Source: Roseinatronobacter alkalisoli
Lineage (GTDB): Bacteria > Pseudomonadota > Alphaproteobacteria > Rhodobacterales > Rhodobacteraceae
Length of the DNA: 64,000 nucleotides
Direction of reading: 5' to 3'
Assembly: GCF_028745735.1 (NCBI RefSeq)
Contig: NZ_JAQZSM010000007.1
Coordinates: 1 to 64,000, forward strand
Made by a program: the position numbers and the translations under genes
Notes under the pieces: generated by a model
Database searches by the model: none
The model's input: only the letters and a program-made list of their open reading frames with translations
Told to the model about the DNA's origin: nothing
Shown here: piece after piece, positions 4,282 to 62,782 of the stretch
Layout: every line of letters starts with the position of its first letter
Position numbering within the stretch: the first letter of the stretch is position 1

Positions 4282-4458
4282 CCAAAGGCGCGGAATCAAG
4301 GCCGCAAGGCTGGCCCACGCCATAGGCCCGGCCGTCCCGCGGCCTGCCGGTTCCGCTGGCGGTGACTCACGCCTTGAATGCCGGTGTATGCCGCCTGCAT
4401 AAAGTGAACCCCTATCACGCAGGACCGGCAGCCCCCGGCCCACCGCTGACGCGGGCTT
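4282..4458 (+). repeat. Structured intergenic element, copy A
   Basis: First of nine near-full copies of a roughly 175-bp element. Modules in order: a 5' block starting CCAAAGGCGCGGAATCAAGG, a GC hairpin around CGGCCGTCCCGCGGCC, the core GCCTGCATAAAGTGAACC, then a GGACCGGCAGCCCCCGGCCC block ending CGCGGGCTT. It fills most of the 4211-4506 gap between convergent genes. Confidence 0.85.
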
Positions 4459-4506
4459 GGTGCATAGGTCAACACCCACCCCCGTCGATAACCACCCCGG
4501 CCCGCC

Positions 4507-5223
4507 TCAGATGGTCACAACGCGGGTGCCGTTGGGCACACGGCCAAACAGGTCAATCACATCATGATCGACCATGCGGATACAGCCCGATGACACATAT
4601 TGCCCGATCAGCCACCATTCCGGCGTGCCGTGAATGCGGTAGCCCTGATCGCGCCCGCCGGTCATCAGGTAAAGTGCGCGCGCGCCCAGCGGGTTTCGTG
4701 GCCCGCCCGGCATGCCGCCCGCAAAACGCGCCAGCCATGGCTCGCGCCGGATCATGTTGGCGGTTGGTGTCCATGTCGGCCAATGCGCGCGCCGGTAAAT
4801 AGTGCCGGTGCCGCGCCAGGTGAACCCTTCGCGCCCGACCGCAATGCCATAGCGCAGCGCATGCCCGTCGGGCAGCACCAGAAACAGCTTCCGTTCCGGG
4901 TTGTCGATCACGATGGTCCCGGGGCGGAAGCGGGTGGCATAGGGCACCACATCGCGGTGGAATTCAGGGGGGATCATGCTCATGCCGATGGCGCGCAGGG
5001 AATGCGCACCATCAGGGCGGGCCTCATAGCTGAGGGGGGCAATACCATAGCGCGCGGCAATCGGGGACATCGGTTCAGTGCGCGTGGTGGCAATGGGACG
5101 GCCGTCTTCGGTCATGCGCGGGCTTGCCAAAGGGGCGGTGCTGGTGGATTCACATGCGCCAAGGGCCAGCGCAGATGCAGCTGCGCCCGTGGTCAGAAAT
5201 CCGCGTCGAGAAATCAAGTTCAT
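4507..5223 (-). CDS. L,D-transpeptidase (YkuD domain), Tat-exported lipoprotein
   Basis: A periplasmic peptidoglycan cross-linking or lipoprotein-attaching transpeptidase. The 238-residue protein has a twin-arginine signal (ISRRGFLTTGAAA) and a lipobox ending in Cys24 (LALGAC), so it is probably folded before export and then lipidated. The YkuD domain occupies about residues 103-238, with His198 in YRIHGTPEW and the nucleophile Cys214 in SSGCIRMVDHD. The ATG at 5223 is preferred over an upstream in-frame start because it places the Tat signal at the N-terminus. It lies 150 bases after eda on the same strand. Confidence 0.9.
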   Translation of the reverse strand: MNLISRRGFLTTGAAASALALGACESTSTAPLASPRMTEDGRPIATTRTEPMSPIAARYGIAPLSYEARPDGAHSLRAIGMSMIPPEFHRDVVPYATRFRPGTIVIDNPERKLFLVLPDGHALRYGIAVGREGFTWRGTGTIYRRAHWPTWTPTANMIRREPWLARFAGGMPGGPRNPLGARALYLMTGGRDQGYRIHGTPEWWLIGQYVSSGCIRMVDHDVIDLFGRVPNGTRVVTI

Positions 5224-5375
5224 GGTGCAACCTGTTATGGTTGCCTGTATTTTTATCTGCCTCTGATCACAGTGATACGCAGGCACCGCTTGCCGCGTCC
5301 AGCGTGCTGAGTGGCAAACAGGCCCGCATCCGGGGTTTCGGGGCGCAGTGTTGCCAATGCGCCACCGTTGTGGTG

Positions 5376-6017
5376 TCAGCGTGGCAGGCTGGCCGCGTCG
5401 CGCGCAAGTGCCGTGATCCCCGCCCAGTCGCCCGCATCCATCATGGATTTTGGTGCGACCCAACTGCCGCCGACACAGGCGACATTGGGCAGTTTCAGGT
5501 AATCTGGCGCAAGGGCAGGGGTAATGCTGCCGGTCGGGCAGAATGTGACCTGCGGCAATGGCCCGCCAATGGATTTCAGCGCGCCCGCCCCCCCGATGGA
5601 TTCGGCGGGAAAGAATTTCTGCACTGTATAGCCCAGTTCCAGCAGCGCCATCACCTCTGAGCAGGTCTGCGCGCCGGGCAGCAGCGCCATGTCATTCGCG
5701 CGCGCGGCGTCGGTCAGTGCAGGGGTGGACCCGGGAGAGACCGCAAAAACGGCGCCAGCGGCGCGCGCGGCTTCCATCTGCGCCGGGGTCAGCACTGTGC
5801 CCGCGCCCAGAATCGCCCCGTCAACCTGCGCCATCTGCGCGATTGCTTCCAGCGCGCAACTGGTGCGCAGGGTGACTTCCAGCACCGGCAGACCGCCCGC
5901 AACCAGCGCTTCGGCCAGCGGGCGCGCATGGGCCAGGTCATGAATGACCAGAACCGGAATGACAGGGGCCAACTGGCAGAGTTTCAGGGCGCGGTCGCTT
6001 TGTTCAGTGGGGGTCAT
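5376..6017 (-). CDS. eda: 2-dehydro-3-deoxy-phosphogluconate (KDPG/KHG) aldolase
   Basis: Cleaves KDPG to pyruvate and glyceraldehyde 3-phosphate, the last step of the Entner-Doudoroff pathway. The 213-residue protein has the class I aldolase features: Glu47 in [10 protein letters not shown], the [10 protein letters not shown] loop, and the Schiff-base Lys134 in [10 protein letters not shown]. Phosphate binding is by the GG/GS loops near the C-terminus. No edd gene is adjacent here. The length and motifs are all normal. Confidence 0.93.
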
Positions 6018-6149
6018 GTCGGTGGCTCCTGCGGGATGCTTGCGCTAACGGGAATAGCGCGAAGCAGTGGCCCGCGCAAGACCGGGCTGCGCCGCCCGGA
6101 CGAAACGGCAGGATGTTGCGGGGGGTGGGCGGAACCGGCAGTCGCGCGC

Positions 6150-6322
6150 CCCAAAGCGCGGAACAAGGGCGAAGCCCGCCGCGCCACAGGTCTGGCCGTC
6201 CCGCGGCCTGCCGGTTTCGCCAGCGCATTACCAAGCCAGGAATGCCGGAGTTATGCCGCCAGCATAAAGTGAACTTCTCCCATGCCGGACTGGCAGACCC
6301 CGGCCCACCGCTGGCGCGGCTC
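6150..6322 (+). repeat. Structured intergenic element, copy B
   Basis: Second copy, in the 6018-6353 gap between eda and the SLC13 permease gene (both on the minus strand). It has the CCAAAGCGCGGAACAAGG block, the CGTCCCGCGGCCTGCCGG hairpin, the GCCAGCATAAAGTGAACTTC core and the GCAGACCCCGGCCCACCGC 3' block. It is the only full copy whose upstream flank on the + strand is not the 3' end of a + strand gene. Confidence 0.85.
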
Positions 6323-6353
6323 CGTCTGTGGCCCCGACACGCTGCGCCCGCCC

Positions 6354-8189
6354 CTATAGCGGCCAGAAAATCGGGATGAAAAACGCAGCAGTCGGCGCCA
6401 TCACGAAATGCATCGGGATACCGACACGCATGAAATCGGTGAACTTATACCCGCCCGGCCCGTAAATCAGCGTGTTGGTCTGATACCCGATCGGCGTTGC
6501 AAATGCCGCCGATGCCCCGATCATCACCGCCACCACCAGCGGGCGCGGGTCCACCCCGATGGCCAGCCCCAGACCTATGACAATGGGCGTCAGCACCACC
6601 GCGACGGCATTATTCGTCACCAGTTCGGTCAGGGTTATCGTCAACAGATAGATTGTCAGAATCAACAGGAATGGCGGCAGATCAGCCAGCTTGGGGGCAA
6701 CACTGCCCACAATCAGCGACACCGCCCCAGACGCTTCCAGCCCCGCGCCCACAGCCAGCATGGAAAACACCAGCGCCAGCAACCGGCCATCGATGAAGCC
6801 AAAGGCCTCGTCCGCGTCAATGCAGCGCGTCAGCAGCACCACCGCCACACCGGCAAAGGCCATCAGCGAAATCGGGGCCAGATTCAGCGCCGAGAAGATG
6901 ACAATCGCCATCAATGTCGCAATCACAATCGGCGCATGCCCGCGCCGGTAGGCGCGTTCCGATGTCAGCGTCACATCGCCCAGATTCATGTCCTGTGCCA
7001 GCCGCTGGATGTCCTCTGGCGTTCCCTCCAGCAGCAGCGTGTCGCCCACGCGCACCACCAGATTTTCAAAATTTGTGCCGATATTCTGGTTCCTGCGATG
7101 CACTGCCAGCGGATAGACACCATAGCGCCTGCGCAACCGCATACCGCCCAGCGCGCGGCCCACCATCTTGCAGTCCGGCGCAATCAGCACCTCGACCGTG
7201 GTGGTCTGCACGGATGACAGGCGGTCCACATCATGCGCCGCCGCGGGGTCTGCGGGCAAAGCGCCTGCTTCGCGGGCTTCTTCCACCTGGGTGACATCCT
7301 TGTTGGCCTTCAGTCCCAGCACTTCGGAAATCTGGGTGCGCAGAACCACGCGGTCCCCCGCCTGCAACACCACCGCGCCCATATCCCAGCGCAAGGACGC
7401 ATCCCCGCGCAACACATCGATCACGCGCGCGCCCTCGCGCTGGAACAGATCAACATCGCGCAGGGGTTTGCCGATCAGCCCCGATGTTTCGGGAATGGCA
7501 ACTTCGGTGAAGAACTTGGTGCGCCCGCGATCGGCCATGATATCGCTCATGGAACTGCGTTCGGGCAGCAGGTGACGCCCGATCAACAGCAGATAGCCCA
7601 CCCCCACCACGGCCATGATCGCGCCCAGTTTGGTAATTTCAAACACCGTGAACGGGGCCAGCCCGTTGGCCCGCGCCACCCCGTCCACCAGCAGGTTGGT
7701 GGATGTGCCGATCAAGGTCAGCGTGCCGCCCATGATTGACAGATAACTTAGTGGAATCAACAGTTTAGATGACGTTGTTTTCAGCGTCTTGGCCAATGTG
7801 ATGAACACTGGAATCATCACAACCACAATCGGGGTGTTGTTCACGAAAGCCGACAGGCCCAGCACGGTCAGCGTCAGGATGGAAAGTGTCAGCACGGGGG
7901 CGGTCTTGACATGGCGGATGGCCAGTTGCGTGATCCAGTCCAGCGCGCCGGTGCGCACCAGCGCCCCCACAATGATGAACAATGCGCCGATGGTCCATGG
8001 CGCATGGTTCGACAGCGCCGCAAAGGCCGCATCGCGGGGCAGAATTCCCAGCACCAGCATTGCCACCGCACCGCCGATTGCGGTCACTTCAACAGGATAG
8101 ACTTCTTTCATGAAGGCAATGAACATGCCCACAACAATGCCCAAGGCAATGATGGCCTGCGCAGTCTGGCCCAGTTCCAAGCCCAGCAT
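6354..8189 (-). CDS. SLC13-family permease with two TrkA-C (RCK_C) domains
   Basis: An inner-membrane anion transporter of the divalent anion/sodium symporter superfamily; bacterial members with this layout carry sulfate or dicarboxylates. The 611-residue protein has membrane segments at about 10-200 and 405-611, separated by two cytoplasmic RCK_C domains (about 220-300 and 315-400, for example VRVGDTLLLEGTPEDI). The paired signature loops FVNNTPIVVVMIPV and ELVTNNAVAVVLTPI mark the two inverted halves. It stands alone; the ion specificity is not predictable here. Confidence 0.88.
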   Translation of the reverse strand: MLGLELGQTAQAIIALGIVVGMFIAFMKEVYPVEVTAIGGAVAMLVLGILPRDAAFAALSNHAPWTIGALFIIVGALVRTGALDWITQLAIRHVKTAPVLTLSILTLTVLGLSAFVNNTPIVVVMIPVFITLAKTLKTTSSKLLIPLSYLSIMGGTLTLIGTSTNLLVDGVARANGLAPFTVFEITKLGAIMAVVGVGYLLLIGRHLLPERSSMSDIMADRGRTKFFTEVAIPETSGLIGKPLRDVDLFQREGARVIDVLRGDASLRWDMGAVVLQAGDRVVLRTQISEVLGLKANKDVTQVEEAREAGALPADPAAAHDVDRLSSVQTTTVEVLIAPDCKMVGRALGGMRLRRRYGVYPLAVHRRNQNIGTNFENLVVRVGDTLLLEGTPEDIQRLAQDMNLGDVTLTSERAYRRGHAPIVIATLMAIVIFSALNLAPISLMAFAGVAVVLLTRCIDADEAFGFIDGRLLALVFSMLAVGAGLEASGAVSLIVGSVAPKLADLPPFLLILTIYLLTITLTELVTNNAVAVVLTPIVIGLGLAIGVDPRPLVVAVMIGASAAFATPIGYQTNTLIYGPGGYKFTDFMRVGIPMHFVMAPTAAFFIPIFWPL

Positions 8190-8454
8190 ACTACCCCCTG
8201 ATGGCCCCGGCCTTCTTCGCTGGCCGTTTTCCGAACTTATTGCGATTTACCCGCATCATTGCAAGCCCGCTTCCGCTGGCCAGGCGCGCGCAAGTGGCCG
8301 CATTGCAGGACTGCCGCGATATCGGGCACATCCCGCAGGCCGCAATCACGGGCCTGTGACTGCATCTGACCGCAATGCGCATTCATCCTGCCTGAAATAA
8401 GCCCGGAGCAGGGGCAGGGCGTGGATATCCGCGCGGTGGATATAGCGCCGCGTT

Positions 8455-9309
8455 TCAGCCGCCAAACCCGGCAACCCCCGACAGATCCAGCGGTTGCGGT
8501 CCCGCCTGCGCCAGCCGCCCGCCAATGCGCACCATTTCAATGCGGGTGGCCTGTCCGCTGCGGTCATCGGTTTCGACATAGGTGCCTGACACTGTGGCCG
8601 CCCCCTGCGCCGGTTCAAACCGCGCGCGCGGCATGCCGGTGATGAAGCGGCGCATTGGTTCATCCTTCTGCATACCGATGACGGAATCATAATCGCCGCA
8701 CATGCCCGCATCGGACTGAAACGCCGTGCCGCCTGCCAGAATCTGCGCATCCGCTGTGGGGATATGGGTATGCGTGCCCACCACAAGGCTCGCGCGTCCG
8801 TCGCACCACAGCCCCATCGCGGCCTTTTCCGATGTCGCTTCGCAATGAATATCGACAATCGCGGCCTGCACCATGCCGCCGCGCGGATGGGCGCGCAAAA
8901 CCGGGTCAATCGCGGAAAACGGGTCACCATAGGGCTGTTTCATGAAAACCTGCCCCAGTGCCTGCGCCACCAGCACGCGCCGCCCGTTTGGGGCATCAAA
9001 CACCCGCGCACCCGCGCCGGGGGCACCGGATTTGGCAATGTTCAGGGGCCGGATGATGCGCGGTTCCTGCACGCAGAATTCGCGCATGGTTTTCTGGTCG
9101 AACGCATGGTCCCCCAGCGTGATGACATCGGCCCCCGCATCCAGCAGCGCTTTCGCATGCTCGGGCGTCAGTCCCATACCGCCAGTTGCGTTCTCGCCGT
9201 TCACAACAGCGAAATCCAGCCGCCAGTCGCGGCGCATGACAGGCAGCAGCGCGGCTACCGCAGCGCGCCCGGCCCGTCCCATAACATCACCCAGAAACAA
9301 TATCCGCAT
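8455..9309 (-). CDS. TIGR00282-family metallophosphoesterase (YmdB-like)
   Basis: A calcineurin-like dinuclear metal phosphodiesterase; YmdB homologues hydrolyse 2',3'-cyclic nucleotides and influence RNA turnover. Metal-binding motifs are in order: FLGDVMGRAGR at the N-terminus, VVNGENATGGMG, TLGDHAFD and LVVGTHTHIPTAD. The 284-residue length matches the family. The 265-base gap between this gene and the SLC13 gene start contains nothing I can support. Confidence 0.88.
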   Translation of the reverse strand: MRILFLGDVMGRAGRAAVAALLPVMRRDWRLDFAVVNGENATGGMGLTPEHAKALLDAGADVITLGDHAFDQKTMREFCVQEPRIIRPLNIAKSGAPGAGARVFDAPNGRRVLVAQALGQVFMKQPYGDPFSAIDPVLRAHPRGGMVQAAIVDIHCEATSEKAAMGLWCDGRASLVVGTHTHIPTADAQILAGGTAFQSDAGMCGDYDSVIGMQKDEPMRRFITGMPRARFEPAQGAATVSGTYVETDDRSGQATRIEMVRIGGRLAQAGPQPLDLSGVAGFGG

Positions 9310-9362
9310 GGGCGCAGGTCATAGGGCTGCGCGCGCATCAGGGCAAGGCAAAACCGCTGCAA

Positions 9363-9836
9363 TCAGCGTGCAATTACCCGCAGCCGTACCAATTGCGTCA
9401 AGGGCACGCCAAGGGCGCGGAACCCGTCCAGCGACAACTGGCTGCCCGCGCCTGCCGCCCCACCGGACGGGCGCAGTTCGACCTGCGCGCTGGCACCGCC
9501 CGGCGCTTCTACCCGGCCGGGGGTGGTTTGTGTCACCAGACCTGTGCGCAGCCACAGGCCCGGCTCTGACGGTGCGCCCAGACTGGCCAGTGTTTCGCCA
9601 AGCACGCCGCCGGGGCCCGCGACCGTGACAGCCGTGCCTGCCTGCACATCCCCGTCAACCGCCGTGTCACCGGGGCGCGCTGCGGGGCGCGGGGTATCCG
9701 CATCGGCGGCGCGGGCCATGGCCGCAGGTTCACGCCCATCACTGCCTGCGCGCCCGAACGCGCCGGTCAGTTGTGCGCAGGCTGGCAGGACCAGCACAGG
9801 GATCAGGATCATCAGCGGATGCAATATGTATTTCAT
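9363..9836 (-). CDS. Putative lipoprotein of unknown function
   Basis: A 157-residue exported protein. The N-terminus is a hydrophobic signal ending in a lipobox (VLVLPACAQ), so it should be anchored to a membrane. The mature part is alanine/glycine rich, with a likely beta-rich C-terminus (LRTGLVTQTTPGRVEA, PLTQLVRLRVIAR). Similar Rhodobacteraceae proteins are sometimes named D-galactarate dehydratase, but I see no active-site features that justify an enzyme name. The start at 9836 is selected to expose the signal peptide. It is divergent from moaA. Confidence 0.6.
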   Translation of the reverse strand: MKYILHPLMILIPVLVLPACAQLTGAFGRAGSDGREPAAMARAADADTPRPAARPGDTAVDGDVQAGTAVTVAGPGGVLGETLASLGAPSEPGLWLRTGLVTQTTPGRVEAPGGASAQVELRPSGGAAGAGSQLSLDGFRALGVPLTQLVRLRVIAR

Positions 9837-9919
9837 ACGCCCCAACCTAGTGCGAAGAATACGGCAGGACAATCACCTTCACGCTTGCCGCGCGCGATAG
9901 TGATGGTTACCTTCCCCCC

Positions 9920-10924
9920 ATGACAGCGCCACTCATAGACCCTTTTGCCCGCCCGATTTCCTATCTGCGTGTCTCGGTCACGGACAGGTGCGATTTCCGC
10001 TGTGTCTATTGCATGGCCGAAAACATGACCTTCCTGCCGAAAAAGGAACTTCTGACACTGGAAGAACTGGACCGCATGTGTTCCACCTTCATCCGGCTGG
10101 GGGTGGAAAAGCTGCGCATCACCGGGGGCGAGCCGCTGGTGCGCAAGGGCATCATGACATTTTTTCAGGCCATGTCGCGCCATCTGGACGCGGGCACCCT
10201 GCGGGAGCTGACCCTGACCACCAATGGCAGCCAGCTGCGCCGTTTCGCAAAGGATCTGGTGGAGTGCGGGGTGCGGCGGGTCAATATTTCGCTGGATACG
10301 CTGGATGACCGGAAATTCGCCGATATTACCCGCTGGGGCCGCCTGGCCCAGGTGCTGGACGGCATTGACGCCGCGCAAACAGCGGGGCTGCGGGTGAAAA
10401 TCAACGCGGTGGCGCTGAAGGGTTTCAATGAAGATGAGTTGTTCACCATGGTTGAATGGTGCGGGCAACGCGACATGGACCTGACCTTCATTGAGGTCAT
10501 GCCAATGGGCGATCTGGGCAACGAGGACCGGCTGGACCAGTACTGGCCCCTGTCCGACCTGCGCGCCCGGCTGGCGGAGCGCTTTACCCTGACTGATCTG
10601 GATGAACGCTCGGGCGGGCCGGCGCGCTATGTCCGGCTGGATGAGACCGGCCAGAAAATCGGCTTCATCACGCCGCTGACGCATAATTTCTGCGAAAGCT
10701 GCAACCGCGTGCGCCTGACCTGCACGGGGGAATTGTATATGTGCCTTGGACAGGAAGACATGGCCGACCTGCGCGCGCCCTTGCGCGCCAGCGCGGATGA
10801 CGCGGCGCTGGAACAGGCGATCCGCCGCGCGATCTCGCATAAGCCCAAAGGGCATGATTTCGACTATTCCCGCCAGAAAGTGGACGGTCAGATGACCCGC
10901 CACATGAGCCATACCGGCGGCTGA
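9920..10924 (+). CDS. moaA: GTP 3',8-cyclase MoaA
   Basis: A radical SAM enzyme for the first step of molybdenum cofactor synthesis, converting GTP to the 3',8-cyclo precursor of cPMP. Two [4Fe-4S] sites are visible: the SAM cluster in [14 protein letters not shown] (Cys24, Cys28, Cys31) and the C-terminal cluster in [32 protein letters not shown] is the SAM-binding GGEP motif. The protein ends in Gly-Gly, the conserved tail that is functionally important in MoaA. Its 334 residues are normal. No other moa gene is adjacent. Confidence 0.96.
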
Positions 10925-10932
10925 AACCCGCC

Positions 10933-11108
10933 CCAAAGGCGCGGAATAAAGGGCGCAGCCTGGCCCACGCCACCGGCGGGCCGTCCTGCGGCCTGCCGGT
11001 TTGGCTGGCGTCGATTCAAGCTTTTGAGCTTAAGATTATGCCGCCAGCATAAAGTGAATTCCTCCCATATGGGACCGGCAGACCCCGGCCCACCACTGGC
11101 GCGGCTTT
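10933..11108 (+). repeat. Structured intergenic element, copy C
   Basis: Third copy, starting 8 bases after the moaA stop codon. It has CCAAAGGCGCGGAATAAAGG, the hairpin GGGCCGTCCTGCGGCC, the core GCCAGCATAAAGTGAATTCC and the 3' block GACCCCGGCCCACCACTGG. It stands head-to-tail with copy D; together they take up most of the 589-base gap before the GTA cluster. Confidence 0.85.
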
Positions 11109-11170
11109 ATGCCCGCCTCTGGCGCTGCGACTGGCCGCAACCTTTCAGTGCTGCAGACCCGCTCACGCCC

Positions 11171-11343
11171 CCAAAGGCGCGGAGCAAAGGGCGCAAGCCC
11201 GCCGCGCCACCGGCGGGCCGTCCGGCGGCCTGCTGGTTTTGCCGATGCTGATTCAAGTCTTGAATGGCGGAGTTATGCCGCTTGTATAAAGTGAACTCCT
11301 CCCACGCCGGACCGGCAGACCCCGGCCCACCACTGGCGCGGCG
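11171..11343 (+). repeat. Structured intergenic element, copy D
   Basis: Fourth copy, direct tandem partner of copy C with a 62-base spacer. It has CCAAAGGCGCGGAGCAAAGG, the hairpin GGGCCGTCCGGCGGCC, the core GCTTGTATAAAGTGAACTCC and the 3' block. The bases 11344-11513 before GTA gene g1 contain no other gene; a GTA promoter would be expected here but I cannot define it. Confidence 0.85.
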
Positions 11344-11513
11344 TCATGCCCGCCCCCCCCCCCGGAACAGGCAGCGCACGCGCCCTTAGCATGGCGCACA
11401 GGGTTTTGTCCTATGCTGATCATCCGTGTTTGGCGGGGTCCGGTGGGTGGGGCGCGCAGATCAAGGCGCGCACCACCCCCCATGCAGGGGCCGAGAGAGA
11501 CAGGCAGAACCAT

Positions 11514-11861: not shown

Positions 11862-13131
11862 CGCGGCCCTGGCCGCTCTGCCATGGCTGTTCGAATTCTG
11901 GGCCGCCCCCCACCAACTGCCCCCCGAAGGGGACTGGCGCACATGGGTCTGCATGGGGGGGCGCGGCGCGGGCAAGACACGCGCAGGCGCGGAATGGGTG
12001 CGCGCACAGGTCGAAGGCGCGCGCCCGCTGGACACAGGGGCCGCGCGGCGCGTGGCGCTGGTGGCCGAAACCTATGATCAGGCGCGCGATGTCATGGTCT
12101 TTGGCGACAGCGGCATCATTGCCTGCTCGCCCGCTGACCGCGCGCCGCATTGGGAAGCGGGCAAGCGGCGTCTGGTCTGGCCCAACGGGGCGATTGCGCA
12201 ATGTTTCAGCGCCTCTGACCCCGAAGCGCTGCGCGGCCCGCAATTTGACGCGGCATGGTGTGACGAACTGGCAAAATGGCCCAAGGCCGAAGCCACCTGG
12301 GACATGTTGCAATTCGCGCTGCGTCTGGGCACCCATCCGCGCCAGCTTGTCACCACCACGCCGCGCAATCAGGCCACGCTGAAGGGCATTCTGCGCGCCC
12401 CGTCCACCGTGCTGACCCATGCCGCGACCGAAGCGAACCGCGCCTGGCTTGCGCCATCCTTTCTGGAAGAAATCCGCCACCGCTATCGCGGCACCCGGCT
12501 GGAACGGCAGGAACTGGACGGGCATCTGCTGGAAGATGCGCAAGGCACGCTCTGGCCGCAAACCCTGCTGGAAGGGGCGCGGGTGGCGCATGTGCCGGAT
12601 TTGTCGCGCGTGGTGGTCGCTGTGGACCCTGCGGTCAGCGGGCATGCGGGGTCTGACCTGTGCGGGATCGTGGTTGTGGGCGCAGTGACCGAAGGGCCGC
12701 CCGCTGACTGGCGCGCCTATGTGCTGGAAGATGCCAGCCTGCGCGCCACATCGCCCAGCGAATGGGCGCGCGCCGCCATTGACGCGCTGCACCGCCATGG
12801 TGGCGACCGCATCGTGGCCGAAGTCAATCAGGGCGGCAATCTGGTGGCCGAAGTGCTGCGCCATATCGACCCGCTGGTGCCGTTCCGCGCCGTGCATGCC
12901 AGCCGGGGCAAGGTGCTGCGCGCCGAACCGGTGGCGGCACTTTATGAACAGGGGCGGGTGTTTCATGCCGCCCGCCTTGGCCCGCTGGAGGACCAGATGG
13001 CGCAGATGACCGCGCAGGGGTTCGCAGGCACCGGCAGCCCCGACCGCGTGGATGCGCTGGTCTGGGCCTTGCATGATCTGGTGCTGGGCCCGGCGGCGCG
13101 CTGGTCGCGGCCCATGGTGCGAACGCTGTGA
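11830..13131 (+). CDS. GTA g2: large terminase subunit (packaging ATPase/nuclease)
   Basis: Packages host DNA into GTA heads. The 433-residue protein has a Walker A motif (CMGGRGAGKTRAGAEW), a Walker B/catalytic region (FDAAWCDELAKW), the coupling region LVTTTPRN, and a C-terminal RNase H-like nuclease (VVVAVDPAVSGHAG, GDRIVAEVNQGGN, SPDRVDALVWALHDL). The start at 11830 (GCCGGAGATG) gives the family length; in-frame ATGs further upstream lie inside g1 in another frame and are less likely. In RcGTA this enzyme packages about 4 kb fragments of random genomic DNA. Confidence 0.93.
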   Translation: MVAQFLDSLSDAALAALPWLFEFWAAPHQLPPEGDWRTWVCMGGRGAGKTRAGAEWVRAQVEGARPLDTGAARRVALVAETYDQARDVMVFGDSGIIACSPADRAPHWEAGKRRLVWPNGAIAQCFSASDPEALRGPQFDAAWCDELAKWPKAEATWDMLQFALRLGTHPRQLVTTTPRNQATLKGILRAPSTVLTHAATEANRAWLAPSFLEEIRHRYRGTRLERQELDGHLLEDAQGTLWPQTLLEGARVAHVPDLSRVVVAVDPAVSGHAGSDLCGIVVVGAVTEGPPADWRAYVLEDASLRATSPSEWARAAIDALHRHGGDRIVAEVNQGGNLVAEVLRHIDPLVPFRAVHASRGKVLRAEPVAALYEQGRVFHAARLGPLEDQMAQMTAQGFAGTGSPDRVDALVWALHDLVLGPAARWSRPMVRTL

Positions 13132-13279
13132 TAAGCGCGAATTCATCCCTTCGCGTTAGGGTCACTTTCAGACAGGCCGAAACGGGCGGCGGGACGACAG
13201 ACGCGGGCGCAAGGCCCGTTCGCAGCCGCCATAGCGTATTTTTGGCAAGAGGAAGGGTCAGGAATGGAGTGTATCCGAC

Positions 13280-14503
13280 ATGTTTGATATCTTTCGCAAG
13301 GCGCAGGCACCGGAAAACGCGGCGGGCGATCTGGCGCAGACCAAGGCCTCAGCCGTGGGACCACTGACCGCCGGGCGCATCGGCGCGAAAACCGCCAGCC
13401 TTGGCGTGGCCGGAACCGGTGCGGTGGCATGGACCATGCGCGATGGCGTGTCACTGGCGCGGGCGGGGTTTCTGGGCAATCCTATCGGGTTCCGTGCCGT
13501 GCGCCTGATATCCGAAGCCGCCAGCGCCCTGCCGCTGGTGGTGCAGGACAGCGCGCGCCGCTATGAATTGCACCCGCTGCTGGACCTCATCACCCAGCCC
13601 AACCCCGCACAGGGCCGCGCCGATTTCTTTGACGCGCTTTATGCGCAGCTTCTGCTGTCGGGCAATGCCTATGTCGAGGCTGTGACCGGCCCGGATGGCG
13701 GTGTGCAGGAGCTGCATGTCCTGCGGTCCGAGCGCATGAGCGTGGTGCCCGGTGCCGATGGCTGGCCCGTTGCATGGGATTACACCGTGGGCGCGAAAAA
13801 ACACCGCTTTCACATGCGCGACGGTCTGGCGCCCATCTGCCATATCCGGTCCTTTCACCCCCATGATGACCATTACGGCCTGTCGCCGCTGGCTGCGGCC
13901 GCGCGCGCGGTGGATGTGCATAATGCCGCATCGAACTGGTCCAAGGCGCTGCTGGACAATGCCGCGCGCCCGTCGGGTGCGATTGTCTATCGCGGCCCGG
14001 ACGGGCAGGGCAGCATGAGTGCGGAGCAGTTTGAGCGCCTGCAATCGGAAATTGAAACCAACCATCAGGGCGCGCGCAATGCGGGGCGGCCCATGTTGCT
14101 GGAAGGCGGGCTTGACTGGAAGCCGATGGGGTTTTCGCCCTCCGACATGGAATTTCACCGCACCAAGGAAGCAGCGGCGCGCGAAATCGCCATTGCTTTC
14201 GGGGTGCCGCCCATGTTGCTGGGCATCCCGGGCGATGCGACCTATGCCAATTATCAGGAAGCGAACCGCGCCTTTTACCGGCTGACAGTCCTGCCGATGG
14301 CGCAGCGGGTCGCTGCGGCAGTGGCGCATTGGCTGTCGGGTTTTGTGCCCGGTGACGTGACCCTGAAACCCGATCTGGATCAGGTGCCCGCCCTGGCGGA
14401 AGAACGCGAACAGCAATGGCGCCGCATCGGTCAGGCCGGTTTTTTAAGTGGCGCTGAAAAACGTGTCCTTCTGGGCCTGCCTGCCCATGTCGAGGGCGCA
14501 TGA
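13280..14503 (+). CDS. GTA g3: HK97-type portal protein
   Basis: A dodecameric portal through which DNA enters the capsid. The 407-residue protein has the HK97 portal features: RAVRLISEAASALPLVVQD, the LLLSGNAYVEAV strand, GLSPLAAAARAVDVHNAA, and the crown helix region with FGVPPMLLGIPGDATYANYQEANRAFY. It lies 148 bases downstream of g2, a gap without a gene, and overlaps g3.5 by 4 bases (ATGA). Confidence 0.93.
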   Translation: MFDIFRKAQAPENAAGDLAQTKASAVGPLTAGRIGAKTASLGVAGTGAVAWTMRDGVSLARAGFLGNPIGFRAVRLISEAASALPLVVQDSARRYELHPLLDLITQPNPAQGRADFFDALYAQLLLSGNAYVEAVTGPDGGVQELHVLRSERMSVVPGADGWPVAWDYTVGAKKHRFHMRDGLAPICHIRSFHPHDDHYGLSPLAAAARAVDVHNAASNWSKALLDNAARPSGAIVYRGPDGQGSMSAEQFERLQSEIETNHQGARNAGRPMLLEGGLDWKPMGFSPSDMEFHRTKEAAAREIAIAFGVPPMLLGIPGDATYANYQEANRAFYRLTVLPMAQRVAAAVAHWLSGFVPGDVTLKPDLDQVPALAEEREQQWRRIGQAGFLSGAEKRVLLGLPAHVEGA

Positions 14504-14742
14504 GCGCGCGCCGTCAGACAGGGGGGTCACGCTACCTGTATGACAGTTTTGAGGCAGCGCAAGCGCGGATCGATGCGCAGGAGCGCGTGTTCGAGGTCCG
14601 CAAGGAAGTGCTGGAATTCCGCATGACGCGGCTGGAAACCGCCGTGGAACGTCTGGAACGGCGCTTGTGGCTGGCGGTCTATGCCGTGGCGGCGGGCGTG
14701 CTGCTGCATGGCGCGCTGGCCTTGCTGGCGGCAACCCAATGA
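14500..14742 (+). CDS. GTA g3.5: small coiled-coil membrane-type protein
   Basis: An 80-residue protein at the position of RcGTA g3.5 between portal and protease. The middle is a charged helix likely to form a coiled coil (EAAQARIDAQERVFEVRKE, TRLETAVERLERRLW), and the C-terminus is a single hydrophobic segment (AVYAVAAGVLLHGALALL). The role in GTA particles is not well known. It starts with ATGA overlap to g3 and its stop overlaps the next gene's start region. Confidence 0.75.
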   Translation: MSARRQTGGSRYLYDSFEAAQARIDAQERVFEVRKEVLEFRMTRLETAVERLERRLWLAVYAVAAGVLLHGALALLAATQ

Positions 14743-14753
14743 AAGGGGTCGAT

Positions 14754-15284
14754 ATGGAGTATAAATTCTGCAAACCCGAAGCCGGTCTGACATTGCTGGA
14801 GGGGCACCGCATTGCGGGCTATGCCAGTGTGTTTGGGCGGCGCGACAAGGGGGGCGACACGGTTCTGCCCGGTGCCTATGGCGCATCGCTGCAAAAACTG
14901 GCCGCGCGCGGCGATAAGGTGCGCATGCTGTGGCAGCATGACCCCGCCCAGCCCATCGGCATCTGGGATGAAGTGTCCGAGGATGCCCATGGCCTGTTCG
15001 TCAAGGGCCGCCTTCTGCCCGATGTGGCGCGCGCGCGCGAAGCGCTGGCGCTGTTGCAGGCGGGCGCGCTGGACGGGTTGTCCATCGGCTACCGCACGGT
15101 GCGCGCGCAGGCGCTGGCCACAGGCGGGCGCAATCTGGTGGAACTGGACCTGTGGGAAGTCAGCCTTGTGACCTTTCCCATGCAGACAGAGGCCCGCATC
15201 AGCGCGAAATCCGACCTGCTGGCAGGGTTGCGGCACGCGACCGCCAGCATGCGCGACGCGCGCGAAGCTGTTGCGCGGCTCTAG
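14754..15284 (+). CDS. GTA g4: HK97-family prohead protease
   Basis: Serine protease that trims the capsid protein during head maturation. The 176-residue protein contains HRIAGYASVFGRRDKGGD, the catalytic His in MLWQHDPAQPIG, the catalytic Ser in DGLSIGYRTV, and the LWEVSLVTFPMQTEARI strand. The ATG at 14754 has AAGGGG 6-7 bases upstream; an alternative ATG at 14739 overlaps the g3.5 stop (ATGA) and would add five residues. Confidence 0.9.
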   Translation: MEYKFCKPEAGLTLLEGHRIAGYASVFGRRDKGGDTVLPGAYGASLQKLAARGDKVRMLWQHDPAQPIGIWDEVSEDAHGLFVKGRLLPDVARAREALALLQAGALDGLSIGYRTVRAQALATGGRNLVELDLWEVSLVTFPMQTEARISAKSDLLAGLRHATASMRDAREAVARL

Positions 15285-15384
15285 GTACAGCGCACGCTGC
15301 CTTCACCTGATCTTGGGCCATGCCCGCTATTCTGGCCCCTGATCGCACCACCCCAATCTTCATTTTCGCAAGAGAGAGAGCGAC

Positions 15385-16584: not shown

Positions 16585-16797
16585 TCACGGGTTTCGGGGC
16601 TGCGCGCCTGATCGCGCGGCCCTGTCGCCAACCCGTCCGGTTGCGCAATCGCGCATCCGGGCGGGCAGGGGGTGCGCGGGGTGCGGGTTCTGCCTGTCCG
16701 GTGTTCCCATTGCGCGCCCCTGCATGTGCAGGCAGGCCACGCTGCGCGTGCCCCCGATCCCCCATTTCCTTTGAACCCTGCGCAAAAGGCTGCTGTC

Positions 16798-17385
16798 ATG
16801 GACCTGCAAGCAACAAGCCCCATTCCCCTGTCTGCCCTGCCGCTGGCGGCGTTCCGGGATCATCTGCGCCTGTCGTCGGGATTTGCCGATGCCGTGACCG
16901 AAGATGCGCTTCTGGAACAGTATTTGCGCGCCGCGCTGGACGCGGTGGAAGGGCGGGTGTCGCGCGCGCTGCTCTTGCGCGATTACACCCTGCGCCTGAC
17001 GCGCTGGCGTGATGATTACGCGCAAACCCTGCCGCGCGCGCCTGTGGCGCAGGTCACAGCACTGGTGCTGATTGACCGGCTGGGCGCACAGTCTGTCGTG
17101 CCCCCGGACCGCTATATCCTGCAAGCCGATGGGGCGCGCCCGCGCATTATTGCTGCGGGGTCTGCGCTGCCCGCCATCCCGTCGCGCGGCGCGGTTGAAA
17201 TTACCTTCGCTGCCGGTTTCGGTGCCGCATGGGAGGACATTCCCGCCGATCTGCGCCAGGCCGTGCTGCTGCTGGCCGCGCAATATTATGAACACCGCGA
17301 TACTGGCCCCGCGCCGGATATGGATTTCGGCATCCGCGCCCTGCTGGAACGCTGGCGCGACATCCGCCTTGGGGGACGGGCATGA
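16798..17385 (+). CDS. GTA g6: head completion/adaptor protein (gp6-like)
   Basis: Connects portal to tail. The 195-residue protein corresponds to RcGTA g6: an N-terminal helical part (LSALPLAAFRDHLRLSSGFAD, EDALLEQYLRAALDAVEGR) typical of gp6-like connectors and a C-terminal part with DLRQAVLLLAAQYYEHRDTG. The ATG at 16798 is chosen over an upstream in-frame start because the preceding residues are cysteine- and alanine-rich and do not resemble the family. Overlaps g7 by 4 bases. Confidence 0.85.
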   Translation: MDLQATSPIPLSALPLAAFRDHLRLSSGFADAVTEDALLEQYLRAALDAVEGRVSRALLLRDYTLRLTRWRDDYAQTLPRAPVAQVTALVLIDRLGAQSVVPPDRYILQADGARPRIIAAGSALPAIPSRGAVEITFAAGFGAAWEDIPADLRQAVLLLAAQYYEHRDTGPAPDMDFGIRALLERWRDIRLGGRA

Positions 17386-28068: not shown

Positions 28069-28137
28069 GGCGGCGTGATCGCGGCGGGCGGGCGCGCGAC
28101 GGGTTGATTCCGGTATGATGCGGTGGCTGGTGCATCC

Positions 28138-35054: not shown

Positions 35055-35232
35055 CCAAAGGCGCGGAATCAAGGCCGCGAGGCTGGCCCGCGCCATAGGT
35101 CTGGCCGTCCCGCGACCTGCCGGTTACGCTGGTGTCTTGCCAGGCCTTGAATGTCAGGATTGTGCCGCGTGGATAAAGGAAATTCCTATGACGCCGGACC
35201 GGCAGACCCCGGCCCAACGCTGGCGCGGGCTT
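35055..35232 (+). repeat. Structured intergenic element, copy F
   Basis: Sixth copy, between the oxidoreductase region and the PLDc_N-like gene. It is the most diverged in the core (GCGTGGATAAAGGAAATTCC instead of ATAAAGTGAAC), but the 5' block CCAAAGGCGCGGAATCAAGG and the 3' block GACCGGCAGACCCCGGCCC are intact. Confidence 0.83.
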
Positions 35233-35285
35233 GGGAAGCGCAACAACCGTTTCCGCCCGTTTTATCCCGCACCGTAATTTTTCCG

Positions 35286-45773: not shown

Positions 45774-45802
45774 CAACCGCGCCGGAACGCCCTAGCAAAT
45801 TG

Positions 45803-53117: not shown

Positions 53118-53289
53118 AAAGGCGCGGAGTAAGGCCGCAGGCCGCCGCGCCACCGGCGGGCCGTCCCGCGGCCTGCCGGTTTCGCTGATGGTAATTCAGT
53201 CCTTGAATGCCGGAGTTATGCCGCCGGCATAAAGTGAACATCTCCAACGCCGGACCGGCAGACCCCGGCCCGCCGCTGGCGCGGGCTTT
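53118..53289 (+). repeat. Structured intergenic element, copy G
   Basis: Seventh copy, in the 341-base gap between ribD and tadA. It has AAAGGCGCGGAGTAAGGCCG, the hairpin CGGGCCGTCCCGCGGCCTG, the core GCCGGCATAAAGTGAACATC and the 3' end GGCCCGCCGCTGGCGCGGGC, which pairs well with its own 5' GCCGCGCCACCGGCGGGCC. The rest of the gap (53290-53429) has no recognisable feature. Confidence 0.87.
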
Positions 53290-53888: not shown

Positions 53889-54542
53889 ATGTGGAATGAA
53901 CAGATCATTGCCTATTGCGAAAGAACGGATTTTTCCTATTGGTCCGAACCCGTCAATGCAGTGACAAATCTGGCCTTCGTGATTGCGGCGCTGGTGGTCT
54001 GGCCGCGCACGCGCGGGCTGGTGCTGGCGCGGGGCATGGCCGTTGTGCTGATGGCGGTCGGGGTGGGGTCGTTCCTGTGGCACACGCATGCCACCGACTG
54101 GGCGGGGCTGATGGATGTGGTGTTTATTCTGGTGTTCATTCTGCTGTATCTGTTTGCTGCGACGCGGGATTTTCTGTACGCGCCCGGCTGGCTGGCGGCT
54201 TTGGCGACAGTGATGTTCCTGCCCTATGCGGCGGGGTTTTCATGGGCGGCGGGTCTGGTTTTGCCGGGGCTGGGCGCGAATGCGGCGTATTTCAGCGTGG
54301 CGGTGCTGATTGCGGGATACGGGGTCTGGCTGCGCAACAGGCCTGTTGGCAAGGGGTTGCTGGTGGGGGCAGGGATTTTATGTGTGTCGCTGGGGTTCCG
54401 TATGGCGGACGAGGCTGTATGCGCTGCCTTCCCGACGGGTACGCATTTCATGTGGCATATCCTGAATGCGGTCATGCTGGGCTGGATGATCCATATCTAT
54501 TGTCGGCATGTGGCAGATGCGCGCGGGACGGCACGCCGATAG
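53889..54542 (+). CDS. Ceramidase-domain membrane protein
   Basis: A 217-residue protein with about seven membrane helices, of the alkaline ceramidase/PAQR-like superfamily. Metal-site histidines and acidic residues are in VGSFLWHTHATDWAGLMDVV and ALFPTGTH-like AFPTGTHFMWHILNAVMLGW; SYWSEPVNAVTNLAFVIAAL is the conserved N-terminal segment. A hydrolase acting on lipid amides is the family expectation; the substrate in this bacterium is unknown. The last dozen codons and the stop lie in an inverted partial copy of the structured element (54512-54580). Confidence 0.85.
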   Translation: MWNEQIIAYCERTDFSYWSEPVNAVTNLAFVIAALVVWPRTRGLVLARGMAVVLMAVGVGSFLWHTHATDWAGLMDVVFILVFILLYLFAATRDFLYAPGWLAALATVMFLPYAAGFSWAAGLVLPGLGANAAYFSVAVLIAGYGVWLRNRPVGKGLLVGAGILCVSLGFRMADEAVCAAFPTGTHFMWHILNAVMLGWMIHIYCRHVADARGTARR

Positions 54543-54580
54543 CGCGGGCCAGCCTTGCGCCCTTTGTTCCGCGCCTTTGG
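54512..54580 (-). repeat. Structured intergenic element, truncated inverted copy J
   Basis: On the minus strand this reads CCAAAGGCGCGGAACAAAGG, then GGCTGGCCCGCGCTATCGGC and TGCCGTCCCGCG, matching the 5' half of the element. The core and 3' block are missing. It overlaps the end of the ceramidase gene. It is the only copy I find on the minus strand. Confidence 0.7.
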
Positions 54581-60016: not shown

Positions 60017-60019
60017 GCA

Positions 60020-60940: not shown

Positions 60941-62541
60941 TGAGCAGCGATGTGCTATTGCAGATCCGTGACTTGCAGATCGAAGGTCGCGCGGGCGAGG
61001 ACTGGTTGCCGATCATCAAGGGCGTGAACCTGACCCTGAAGCGTGGCGAGGTTCTGGGGCTGATCGGTGAATCCGGGGCGGGAAAATCCACGCTCGGACT
61101 GGCCGCGATGGGCTTTGCGCGCGATGGCTGCCGCATTTCGGGGGGGGAGATCAATTTCGACGGGATTGACCTGCGCACCGCATCCGAACGCGCGAAGCGC
61201 AATCTGCGCGGGCAGCGCATTGCTTATGTCGCACAATCGGCGGCGGCCAGTTTCAACCCTGCGCATAAGCTGATCGACCAGTATTGCGAAGTGCCGGTCC
61301 TTGGTGGCATGTCCCGCAGCAAGGCCGCGGATGAGGCAGTGACCCTTTATCGCAAGATGCAGTTGCCGGACCCCGAAGATATCGGTTTTCGTTATCCGCA
61401 TCAGGTGTCCGGCGGGCAGTTGCAGCGCGCCATGACCGCGATGGCGATGGCCTGTCATCCCGACCTGATCATCTTTGATGAACCCACCACCGCGCTGGAT
61501 GTGACAACCCAGATAGAGGTGCTGGCCGCCATCCGCGATATCGTGCGCGATTTCAACACTGCCGCGATCTATATCACCCATGATCTGGCCGTGGTGGCGC
61601 AGATGGCCGACCGCATAAAAATCCTGCTGCGCGGCGACGAAGTGGAAGAGGCCGACACCCGCGCCATGCTGGCCGCGCCAAAGGCGGAGTACACCAAAAG
61701 CCTGTGGGCCGTGCGCAGTTTCACGCGCCCCGAACAGCCCCCCGCCGAAGGCGCGCCGCTGGTGTCCGTGCAGGGTGTCACGGCGGGTTACGGCAAGGCG
61801 CAGATCCTGCATGATGTCAGTTTTGACATTCATCCGGGGCGCACTGTGGCCGTGGTGGGCGAAAGCGGGTCGGGGAAATCTACCGTCGCGCGGGTGATTA
61901 CCGGCCTTTTGCCGCCGCGCGAAGGGCAGGTGGTGTTCGACGGCCAGCCTTTGCCGCCTGATTACCGCGCGCGGACCCGCGACCAGTTGCGCCAGTGCCA
62001 GATGATCTATCAGATGGCGGATACGGCGCTGAACCCGAAACTGCCGCTACGGGAACTGATCGGCCGTCCGGCGCAGATGTATCTGGGGCTGAAGGGGCGC
62101 GCGCTGGACGCGCGCGTGCGCGATCTGCTGGCACTGATCGAACTGGAACCGGATCAATATATCGACCGCCTGCCATCTGAATTGTCGGGGGGCCAGAAAC
62201 AGCGTATCGGCATCGCGCGTGCGCTGGCCGCAGAACCGCGCCTGATCATCTGCGATGAAGTGACAAGCGCGCTTGACCAGATCGTGCAGGAAGGCATTCT
62301 GAAACTGCTGGACCGGCTGCAACGTGAATTCGGGCTGGCCTATATGTTCATCACGCATGATCTGTCGACAGTGCGTGCCATTGCCGATGATGTGGTGGTG
62401 ATGCAACTTGGCCGCGTGGTCGAACAAGGCCCGAAACCAGAGATGTTCACCCCCCCGCATGCGCCCTATACCGATCTGTTGCTGTCATCGGTTCCCGAAA
62501 TGGACCCCGACTGGCTGACCCGCCTGCTGGCGGCGCGGTAG
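60940..62541 (+). CDS. Dipeptide-type ABC transporter ATP-binding protein, double NBD
   Basis: A 533-residue ATPase that fuses the DppD- and DppF-type subunits. NBD1 (about 1-255) has Walker A GESGAGKST and signature SGGQLQRAM; NBD2 (about 270-533) has GESGSGKST and SGGQKQRIG, with Walker B segments LIIFDEPTTALDV and LIICDEVTSALDQ. In NBD2 the residue after the Walker B Glu is Val instead of Pro, a common variant. It powers import of the substrate bound by the 57402 receptor. Substrate class is inferred only. Confidence 0.93.
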   Translation: MSSDVLLQIRDLQIEGRAGEDWLPIIKGVNLTLKRGEVLGLIGESGAGKSTLGLAAMGFARDGCRISGGEINFDGIDLRTASERAKRNLRGQRIAYVAQSAAASFNPAHKLIDQYCEVPVLGGMSRSKAADEAVTLYRKMQLPDPEDIGFRYPHQVSGGQLQRAMTAMAMACHPDLIIFDEPTTALDVTTQIEVLAAIRDIVRDFNTAAIYITHDLAVVAQMADRIKILLRGDEVEEADTRAMLAAPKAEYTKSLWAVRSFTRPEQPPAEGAPLVSVQGVTAGYGKAQILHDVSFDIHPGRTVAVVGESGSGKSTVARVITGLLPPREGQVVFDGQPLPPDYRARTRDQLRQCQMIYQMADTALNPKLPLRELIGRPAQMYLGLKGRALDARVRDLLALIELEPDQYIDRLPSELSGGQKQRIGIARALAAEPRLIICDEVTSALDQIVQEGILKLLDRLQREFGLAYMFITHDLSTVRAIADDVVVMQLGRVVEQGPKPEMFTPPHAPYTDLLLSSVPEMDPDWLTRLLAAR

Positions 62542-62564
62542 GCCGGGGGCAGCGGTCAGGATTC

Positions 62565-62782
62565 CCAAAGGCGCGGAGCAAAGGCCGCAGGGCTTGAAGG
62601 GACCGTCGCGCCAGTGGCGCGGCGAAAGCCCGGAAAACGCGCCACCGGCGGGCCGTCCCGCGGCCCGCCGGTGGCGCTGATGACACGCCAAGCCAATGAT
62701 GCAGGAATTATGCCGCCTGCATAAAGTGAACTTATCCCACGTCGGACCGGCAGACCCCGGCCCGACCTGTGTCGCGGGCTTT
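62565..62782 (+). repeat. Structured intergenic element, copy I with insertion
   Basis: Ninth copy, between the convergent ATPase and aldehyde dehydrogenase genes. It is 218 bases long because about 45 bases starting TTGAAGGGACCGTCG are inserted in the 5' half, just before GCGCCACCGGCGGGCC. The insertion includes the 29-bp repeat R2 also found at 42903-42931. The core GCCTGCATAAAGTGAACTTA and the 3' block are intact. Confidence 0.85.
62594..62622 (+). repeat. 29-bp repeat R2, copy 2
   Basis: Identical to the minus-strand sequence at 42903-42931 over 29 bases (TTGAAGGGACCGTCGCGCCA then GTGGCGCGG). Here it sits within structured element copy I. Confidence 0.7.

What the first reader, a model, noticed from the sequence alone, without database searches (positions are those of the whole stretch)
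4282..62782. A dispersed family of roughly 175-bp structured intergenic elements
Nine near-full copies (4282, 6150, 10933, 11171, 28138, 35055, 53118, 56932, 62565) and one truncated copy (54512) share a modular layout: a 5' block with AAAGGCGCGGAAC, a strong hairpin around CGGGCCGTCCCGCGGCCTG, a variable spacer, a core around GCCGCCTGCATAAAGTGAAC, and a 3' block GGACCGGCAGACCCCGGCCC ending in CGCGGGCTT. That is one copy per about 6.5 kb. I do not know a described family with this structure. It could be a non-autonomous mobile element, an RNA structure acting in 3' UTRs, or a binding site for a nucleoid or processing factor.
Basis: seen in the sequence. Interest (0 to 1): 0.85.

Follow-up and report, generated by a model that had tools for sequence, protein, structure and literature searches.

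The report
Palindromic mobile repeats of Rhodobacteraceae
The window holds nine copies of a short, hairpin-forming DNA element that is scattered between genes in many bacteria of one family, sits mostly where two genes end facing each other, behaves like a mobile element without its own enzyme, and was not found named in the sources searched.

Summary
Nine near-full copies and one remnant lie at the stated places. The same genome, probably a Roseinatronobacter, has at least 141 matching places, partial ones included. A family-wide model matches 146 of 295 sampled family genomes; a class-wide sample of 190 gave 3 matches, all in this family. Fifty copies, mostly from other genera, show strong compensatory change in a stem joining both ends. 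Outer inverted arms lengthen the unit. Copies crowd between convergent genes: 37 of 61, against 78 of 496 gaps. One copy reads as a derived insertion at a LysR-uraH junction. At other sites the core was swapped or turned round between relatives. No Rfam family reaches threshold on it, the genome has no Y1 transposase, and no description was found. Best reading: a non-autonomous palindromic mobile repeat, closest in style to CIR and ERIC. Most copies sampled from five other genera carry a GANTC (CcrM) site in the first hairpin loop, as CIR does. What moves it is unknown; a terminator or mRNA role is untested.

The parts
4282..4459 (+). full copy, between convergent genes (Peptidase_C26 3437-4210 and YkuD 4507-5463)
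   Evidence: (165.9 bits)
6150..6324 (+). full copy; upstream and downstream genes both on -
   Evidence: (171.7 bits)
10933..11109 (+). full copy, 8 bp after a gene with Radical_SAM and Mob_synth_C domains (9920-10924)
   Evidence: (176.8 bits)
11171..11346 (+). full copy, second of a pair
   Evidence: 185.7 bits
28138..28315 (+). full copy, between convergent genes
   Evidence: (160.6 bits)
28106..28123 (+). left outer arm motif of the 28138 copy, 13 of 18 bases (weak)
35055..35233 (+). full copy
   Evidence: 160.5 bits
53116..53289 (+). full copy, best R1 score in the window
   Evidence: 199.5 bits
53121..53151 (+). H1 of the 53116 copy: GGCGCGG ... CCGCGCC (no GANTC in its loop in this copy)
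53145..53163 (+). 5' arm of the long end-to-end stem of the 53116 copy
53173..53180 (+). 3' arm of H2, also inner 5' arm of the long stem
53254..53261 (+). inner 3' arm of the long stem, also 5' arm of H3
53266..53284 (+). 3' arm of the long end-to-end stem
54514..54580 (-). truncated copy (first hairpin and part of the second)
   Evidence: 29.8 bits
56933..57110 (+). full copy
   Evidence: 147.5 bits
62565..62782 (+). full copy with an extra ~39-bp hairpin inside H1; core aligned from 62611
   Evidence: 128.4 bits

Best explanation
A Rhodobacteraceae-wide family of non-autonomous palindromic mobile repeats of the MITE/foldback type. Unit: inverted outer arms (inward GGCCTGAAGSGG-type motif) around a 175-bp core of hairpin H1, hairpin H2, a linker with conserved ATAAAG, and H3, an inverted copy of H2, so that both ends can pair. 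SHOWN: dispersal, covarying structure, arms, preference for gene 3' ends (mostly convergent pairs), one presence/absence difference that reads as a derived insertion, replacement of cores at fixed sites. INFERRED: an unknown enzyme acting in trans, or copying between repeats, spreads it; copies survive where they break neither promoters nor reading frames; replication stalling and template switching at the hairpin, using the arms in either direction, swaps and flips cores. GUESS: when transcribed, the hairpin helps to end or protect transcripts from both sides; where the GANTC site is present, CcrM methylation may time its activity.
For: Copy number: 141 places in this genome; R2 finds 135, 96, 138, 93, 31 and 24 matches in six genomes examined. 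Distribution: 146 of 295 family genomes; 3 of 190 across the class, all in this family, one of them the window's own genome. Structure: 50 copies aligned without a structure model; long stem 91.7% paired, 133 cells changed on both sides against 35 in shuffles, covariation 0.264 against 0.067; local hairpins 0.149 against 0.037. Arms: 46% of left and 46% of right flanks hold at least 12 of 18 motif bases against 6% of random stretches; 22 of 24 genome-wide pattern matches lie within 40 bp of an R1 match, reversed-pattern control 1. Context: 37 of 61 copies between convergent genes against 78 of 496 gaps (p 3e-13), 3 of 61 divergent against 104 of 496. Insertion: a 288-bp gap with the element between LysR and uraH in Pseudosulfitobacter SC33-90, a 4-bp overlap in SMR1, and 62 other genomes with both genes in one stretch of 1234-1315 bp. 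Turnover.
Against: No target-site duplication is visible at the one insertion examined. No autonomous partner was found: no Y1 transposase in the genome and no large element with these arms recognised. At the one mapped site where G012 lacks the copy that G020 has, G012 has a gene-like stretch, not a clean empty site. A genome with an insertion at LysR-uraH would give split matches, so the 62 contiguous cases do not count how many have one; at least one listed genome (G303) has the two genes about 220 bp apart, not examined. Swaps could be gene conversion with little or no transposition. The covariation could mean selection on a function rather than on mobility.
Confidence: 0.73

Rival explanations
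1. A functional RNA or bidirectional terminator kept at gene 3' ends: the transcribed palindrome folds into a long hairpin that stops RNA polymerase or blocks 3' exonucleases on both sides.
For: 37 of 61 copies lie between convergent genes and 35 of 80 convergent gaps read hold one; RNA folds of the 53116 copy are -91 and -99 kcal/mol on the two strands; terminator-like hairpins outside the element are less frequent in gaps with it (10 of 35 against 21 of 45; 0 of 17 against 6 of 13 in short gaps); strong covariation.
Against: T-runs after the outer hairpins are mostly 2-3 bases; the terminator difference is not significant overall (p 0.11) and short gaps leave little room for one; R1 found no copy in 8 of 35 same-genus genomes (some incomplete, strict filters, and divergent copies may be missed) while others have over 100; one copy sits beside an ordinary-looking terminator (by eye).
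Confidence: 0.3
2. A Rhodobacteraceae branch of the CcrM-associated CIR repeats: two inverted-repeat arms joined by a linker, with the CcrM site GANTC exposed in a hairpin loop and read by the cell-cycle methylation system.
For: GANTC in the H1 loop in 17 of 20 high-scoring copies from five genomes, taken from model match lists and not by that motif; a CcrM-type methylase (N6_N4_Mtase plus RAMA) encoded in this genome and a RAMA domain in the three others tested; CIR layout as described in PMC2229807 section 7.
Against: GANTC at that place in only 21 of 101 Roseinatronobacter copies, although copies are abundant there; R2 was itself built from an alignment in which 38 of 50 rows have the site, which may favour it; core length 175, not ~110; no R2 match outside the family in the class sample. 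The original CIR paper is not held, so sequences were not compared.
Confidence: 0.25
3. REP/REPIN-type elements mobilised by a RAYT (Y1) transposase.
For: H3 is an inverted copy of H2, giving two hairpins in opposite orientation around a spacer, as in REPINs as I recall them.
Against: No Y1_Tnp match in this genome; 26 of 295 family genomes have one, 15 of these 26 have the element against 146 of 295 overall, no association (p 0.42); no GT(A/G)G head seen at the hairpin foot in the alignments.
Confidence: 0.05
4. Ancient fixed repeats that spread long ago and now evolve only by gene conversion between copies.
For: Seven of 8 G020 sites mapped in G012 are shared, while cores or core tracts are replaced at some; positional pairs between the window's genome and its relatives rank a little better than random, as partly overwritten descent would give.
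Against: Presence against absence at the LysR-uraH junction, with 62 contiguous cases elsewhere; five mapped gaps occupied in only one of the window's genome and a relative, although at least one of these holds a degenerate remnant.
Confidence: 0.22

Closest known systems
CIR (Caulobacter CcrM-associated intergenic repeats), known here only from PMC2229807; the original paper is not held
   Same: Intergenic, alphaproteobacterial, two inverted-repeat arms joined by a linker, GANTC in a terminal hairpin loop in most copies sampled outside Roseinatronobacter.
   Different: Longer (175-bp core plus arms against ~110), more copies per genome than I recall for Caulobacter, ends also pair with each other, GANTC mostly absent in this genus, no relative detected outside the family in the class sample.
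ERIC/IRU (PMC2229807, passages)
   Same: Intergenic imperfect palindrome with 5'-3' end pairing; effects on mRNA when at a gene's 3' end are reported.
   Different: ERIC is 127 bp, enterobacterial, with TA ends and target duplication; no such duplication was seen here.
Correia/NEMIS (PMC10969869 and PMC2229807, passages)
   Same: Inverted terminal repeats of about 24 bp, two sizes, inversion in place reported.
   Different: Different host, and no sequence was compared; Correia copies are described as predominantly upstream of genes, these lie mostly downstream.
REPIN/BIME with RAYT (PMC2817692, passages; rest recalled)
   Same: Hairpins in opposite orientation, high copy number, extragenic.
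   Different: No RAYT in the genome, no GT(A/G)G head seen.
Br-REP1/2 of Bradyrhizobium (PMC5082802, passages)
   Same: Alphaproteobacterial repeats with several stem-loops, in overlapping 3' UTRs of convergent genes.
   Different: Short palindromes of about 20 and 40 nt with another consensus, reported in Bradyrhizobium and Rhodopseudomonas.

Membership tests
MITE (non-autonomous transposon) | terminal inverted repeats | tested here: met
   outer arms on both sides, 46% and 46% of flanks against 6% background at 12 of 18 bases; 22 of 24 pattern matches next to an R1 match. Many copies have weak arms.
MITE (non-autonomous transposon) | target-site duplication | tested here: inconclusive
   none visible at the one insertion examined
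MITE (non-autonomous transposon) | presence/absence difference between relatives | tested here: met
   LysR-uraH junction
MITE (non-autonomous transposon) | autonomous parent with the same ends | tested here: inconclusive
   none recognised in the 847 kb read or among 24 genome-wide arm matches; weaker ends or other genomes were not examined
CIR | two inverted-repeat arms joined by a linker | tested here: met
CIR | conserved GANTC at a terminal loop | tested here: inconclusive
   17 of 20 copies from five genomes, but 21 of 101 in Roseinatronobacter
CIR | length about 110 bp | tested here: not met
   core 175 bp, unit longer
CIR | sequence relationship to CIR1-4 | not testable with these tools
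   original paper not held; R2 matches in the class sample all lie in one family
REP/REPIN | associated Y1 (RAYT) transposase | tested here: not met
   0 matches in this genome
REP/REPIN | GT(A/G)G head at the hairpin | tested here: not met
   absent by eye from the aligned hairpin feet; feature from PMC2817692
ERIC | 127-bp enterobacterial consensus | not tested
   no ERIC sequence was compared; named hosts here are Rhodobacterales
any Rfam family | score at or above the curated threshold on a copy | tested here: not met
   hits above threshold (FMN riboswitch, SorX) lie outside the copies

The most novel reading that the evidence does not exclude
The sites act as docking places: the outer arms stay while the core between them is exchanged for another family member in either orientation, a cassette-like replacement at palindromes driven by replication template switching or an unknown recombinase, possibly timed by CcrM methylation of the GANTC in the first hairpin loop. 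That would explain why the same gaps are occupied in related species by cores that are not each other's best match and often point the other way.
Probability: 0.25. Interest if true: 0.8.

Novelty: new variant of a known kind. Interest (0 to 1): 0.62.

Why it matters
An element matched in about half of the Rhodobacteraceae genera sampled (145 of 294), with over 100 copies in some genomes and a strongly covarying structure, appears unnamed in the sources searched. If the reading holds, it is an alphaproteobacterial counterpart to ERIC and CIR, marks 35 of 80 convergent gene junctions in the part of this genome that was read, supplies markers for strain typing, lies at the ends of observed inversions, and makes it testable how palindromic repeats spread and are replaced without an obvious transposase.

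Tried and rejected
REPIN/RAYT was rejected because the genome has no Y1 transposase. A strand-specific RNA was tested by comparing A-C with G-U cells in the long stem: 56 against 12 in 50 family copies and 125 against 34 in 101 Roseinatronobacter copies, column sign tests p 0.08 and 0.05. This leans towards folding of the reverse strand but rests on a few columns, and local H2 leans the other way, so no claim is made. An autonomous parent was sought by arm motif and with one arm in plasmids (no match). One query against phage records gave no match. A clean empty site between G020 and G012 was sought and not found. Three further Pseudosulfitobacter sites gave no usable empty site. The GANTC count (4 of 20) used a misplaced window; one search replaces it (17 of 20). 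At low score the arm motif is mostly chance: 75 of 534 hits near a copy at 9 bits, 18 of 24 at 18 bits.
Full report
OBSERVATION. The window is the start of contig C98 of an assembly of 4.84 Mb. A covariance model R1, built from 32 copies of this genome, finds 143 matches there, on both strands. Two are antisense echoes of a listed copy, leaving 141 places, of which 115 rows are 150-200 bp, 9 at least 205 bp and 17 only 60-85 bp. Only 150 of 4879 candidates were scored, so this is a lower bound. The window is denser than the genome average.

WHOSE GENOME. A genus mate, G020, corresponds to Roseinatronobacter sp. S2: a plasmid record of that strain has the element at the same place as G020 contig 3. 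So the genus is most likely Roseinatronobacter; this is an inference.

SPREAD. R1 matched 28 of 60 genomes, the window's own included, all of the same genus, and 89 of 295 genomes of the family, mostly one per genus. R2, built from 50 copies, mostly from other genera, matched 146 of 295; only 9 candidates were scored per genome. In a class-wide sample 3 of 190 matched, all in the same family, one of them the window's own genome; how many of the other 187 lie outside the family is not fully listed. R2 counts in six genomes: 135, 96, 138, 93, 31, 24, with 150 candidates scored in each. Ninety-five plasmid records of Pseudosulfitobacter (91), Salipiger (3) and Roseinatronobacter (1) match one copy, mostly over part of it; the six of these loci examined were confirmed with R2. 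One query gave no match in phage records.

ANATOMY. The 175-bp core has H1 (GCGCGG...CCGCGC with an inner stem), H2, a linker with conserved ATAAAG, and H3, which is an inverted copy of H2. The 3' end repeats GCGCGG, so the ends can pair. In an alignment made without any structure model, the long stem has 91.7% of 1332 cells paired, 14 of 27 pairs with changes on both sides, 133 doubly changed cells against 35 in shuffles, and a covariation score of 0.264 against 0.067; no slid version exceeds 0.062. Local hairpins also covary (0.149 against 0.037). Three long-range pairs (columns 48-171, 49-170, 50-169) carry 43 double changes and 3 unpaired cells in 150. Relatedness of the rows inflates such scores somewhat, as the tool warns. 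The H2 arms and the 5' arm of H3 change together, so two alternative folds are possible. The sequences do not say whether RNA or single-stranded DNA folds.

OUTER ARMS. Aligning flanks revealed an inverted motif reading inward, GGTTCYGGCCTGAAGSGG, mostly 4-17 bp from the core; 46% of left and 46% of right flanks of 61 copies hold at least 12 of 18 bases, against 6% of random stretches. Twenty-two of 24 genome-wide matches with up to two mismatches lie within 40 bp of an R1 match, against one match of the reversed control pattern. In the 847 kb read, 18 of 24 hits of at least 18 bits are near a full copy and four of the other six are beside weak R1 matches; at lower scores most hits are chance. 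Homology fades outward through a GATCRGGTTGAAACA-like block (by eye). Similar arms are seen by eye in other genera.

PLACE IN THE GENOME. In 847 kb of this genome (five contigs chosen because they hold many copies), with genes called by a script of my own, 61 copies of at least 94 bits were examined; the other 68 of 129 matches, partial, weak or antisense, were dropped. Thirty-seven lie between convergent genes (78 of 496 gaps of at least 30 bp are convergent), 3 between divergent genes (104 of 496), and 1 overlaps a gene call by more than 40 bp (p 3e-13 and 0.002). Thirty-five of 80 convergent gaps hold one. Terminator-like hairpins are found beside 10 of these 35 and in 21 of the 45 others, not a significant difference.

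MOBILITY. In Pseudosulfitobacter strain SC33-90 a 288-bp gap with the element separates LysR and uraH; in strain SMR1 these genes overlap by 4 bp. Of 177 family genomes with a match to the SMR1 pair, 62 show both genes in one stretch of 1234-1315 bp, against 1268 in SMR1, and Tropicibacter has them 11 bp apart. So the insertion reads as derived. The count is one-sided: genomes with a long gap would give split matches; one such, G303, has the genes about 220 bp apart and was not examined. No target duplication is visible. No Y1 transposase is in the window's genome, and its presence is not associated with the element (15 of 26 Y1 genomes have it, 146 of 295 overall, p 0.42).

TURNOVER IN PLACE. 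G020 and G012 are 91-98% identical where long stretches align. Of 8 G020 sites mapped to G012, 7 hold the element in both, in the same orientation; the eighth (the 4282 site) has a gene-like stretch in G012. Of seven pairs whose cores were compared (one mapped pair fell on a tile border, one further pair was matched by hand), five are 92-98% identical and two are 87%; at the two, differences cluster in core and arms rather than in the far flanks. Between the window's genome and G020 or G012, 7 mapped gaps are occupied in both, 3 in the same and 4 in the opposite orientation, and 5 gaps are occupied in one only; two more copies travel inside an inverted segment. Eleven positional pairs are 72-84% identical, against a median of 77% for all pairs. 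None is the best match: ten rank 2-7 and one 21 among 18-22, and reverse ranks are 8-51 of 61. That is a little better than random, so partly overwritten descent is as possible as new insertion. At one flipped site the flank is alignable right up to an arm (by eye), which favours turning in place. In Pseudosulfitobacter, two plasmids agree over 1601 bp (98.1%) on one side and 1822 bp (90.7%) on the other, but the core between is a different variant in the opposite orientation. Remnants with deleted cores exist. Two inversions have copies at or near their ends.

CcrM. In 20 high-scoring copies from five genomes, taken from R1 and R2 match lists and not by the motif, 17 have GANTC in the H1 loop, and one other GANTC occurs in the rest of the cores. 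R2 itself was built from rows of which 38 of 50 have the site, part of them found with a pattern that admits it; among 15 rows not found that way it is 10. In Roseinatronobacter it is 21 of 101. The genome encodes a CcrM-type methylase (N6_N4_Mtase plus RAMA; NCBIfam CcrM model at 633 bits, below its cut-off of 830).

KNOWN KINDS. No Rfam family reaches its threshold on a copy (window, 11 loci with all hits to E 5, where one sub-threshold hit, mir-557 at E 0.24, overlaps a copy). Paper searches found no description; the library holds only open-licence papers. Passages were read in PMC5082802, PMC10969869, PMC2817692 and PMC2229807 (and section 7); other papers were seen only in search listings. 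CIR, as summarised in PMC2229807, is the closest in layout; whether this is a distant CIR could not be tested because the original paper is not held.

VERDICT. A real, widespread, structured and mobile-looking repeat family of a known general kind, with two unusual traits: replacement of the core at fixed sites in either orientation, and a GANTC in one hairpin loop in most copies sampled outside this genus. How it moves and whether hosts use it remain open. After checking, the odds of the main reading were lowered slightly (0.75 to 0.73) because the positional pairs rank better than random and the LysR-uraH count is one-sided.

Noticed in passing
window 45801-45933: FMN riboswitch, the only Rfam hit above threshold in the window.
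   Followed up: no
window about 6150-11346 against L087 and L088: A segment of about 5 kb is inverted between this genome and G020/G012, with copies of the element at or near the ends.
   Followed up: partly
L149 about 12776-17608 and L157 about 649-5702: A 4.7-kb inversion between G012 and G020 with a full copy, a partial copy and a core-deleted remnant at its ends.
   Followed up: partly
own genome, e.g. C98:107693-107908 and C98:111261-111477; window 62565-62782: Nine R1 matches are at least 205 bp long; the window copy at 62565 owes its length to an extra hairpin of about 39 bp inside H1, and the others may too.
   Followed up: no
own genome, e.g. C38:76405-76482, C54:182953-183029, C55:27494-27572: Seventeen R1 matches are only 60-85 bp long, many spanning both model ends, so repeated loss of the middle or a separate mini-form.
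   Followed up: no
L088 about 17074-17487: At the site of the 4282 copy, G012 has instead a stretch with what looks by eye like a haem-binding CxxCH motif.
   Followed up: no
window 2-127: The first bases of the window match three contigs of G018 and one of G021, perhaps another repeat at which assemblies break.
   Followed up: no
G000 contig C98 about 66920-68023, just beyond the window: The CcrM-type methylase gene lies about 3 kb past the window end (position worked out from the locus layout).
   Followed up: partly
L079 2862-2936: SorX small RNA about 1.2 kb from an element copy in a family member.
   Followed up: no
L185, L190, L234: Other genera have further small hairpins inserted in the H2 arm, seen by eye, which suggests modular growth of the element.
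   Followed up: no
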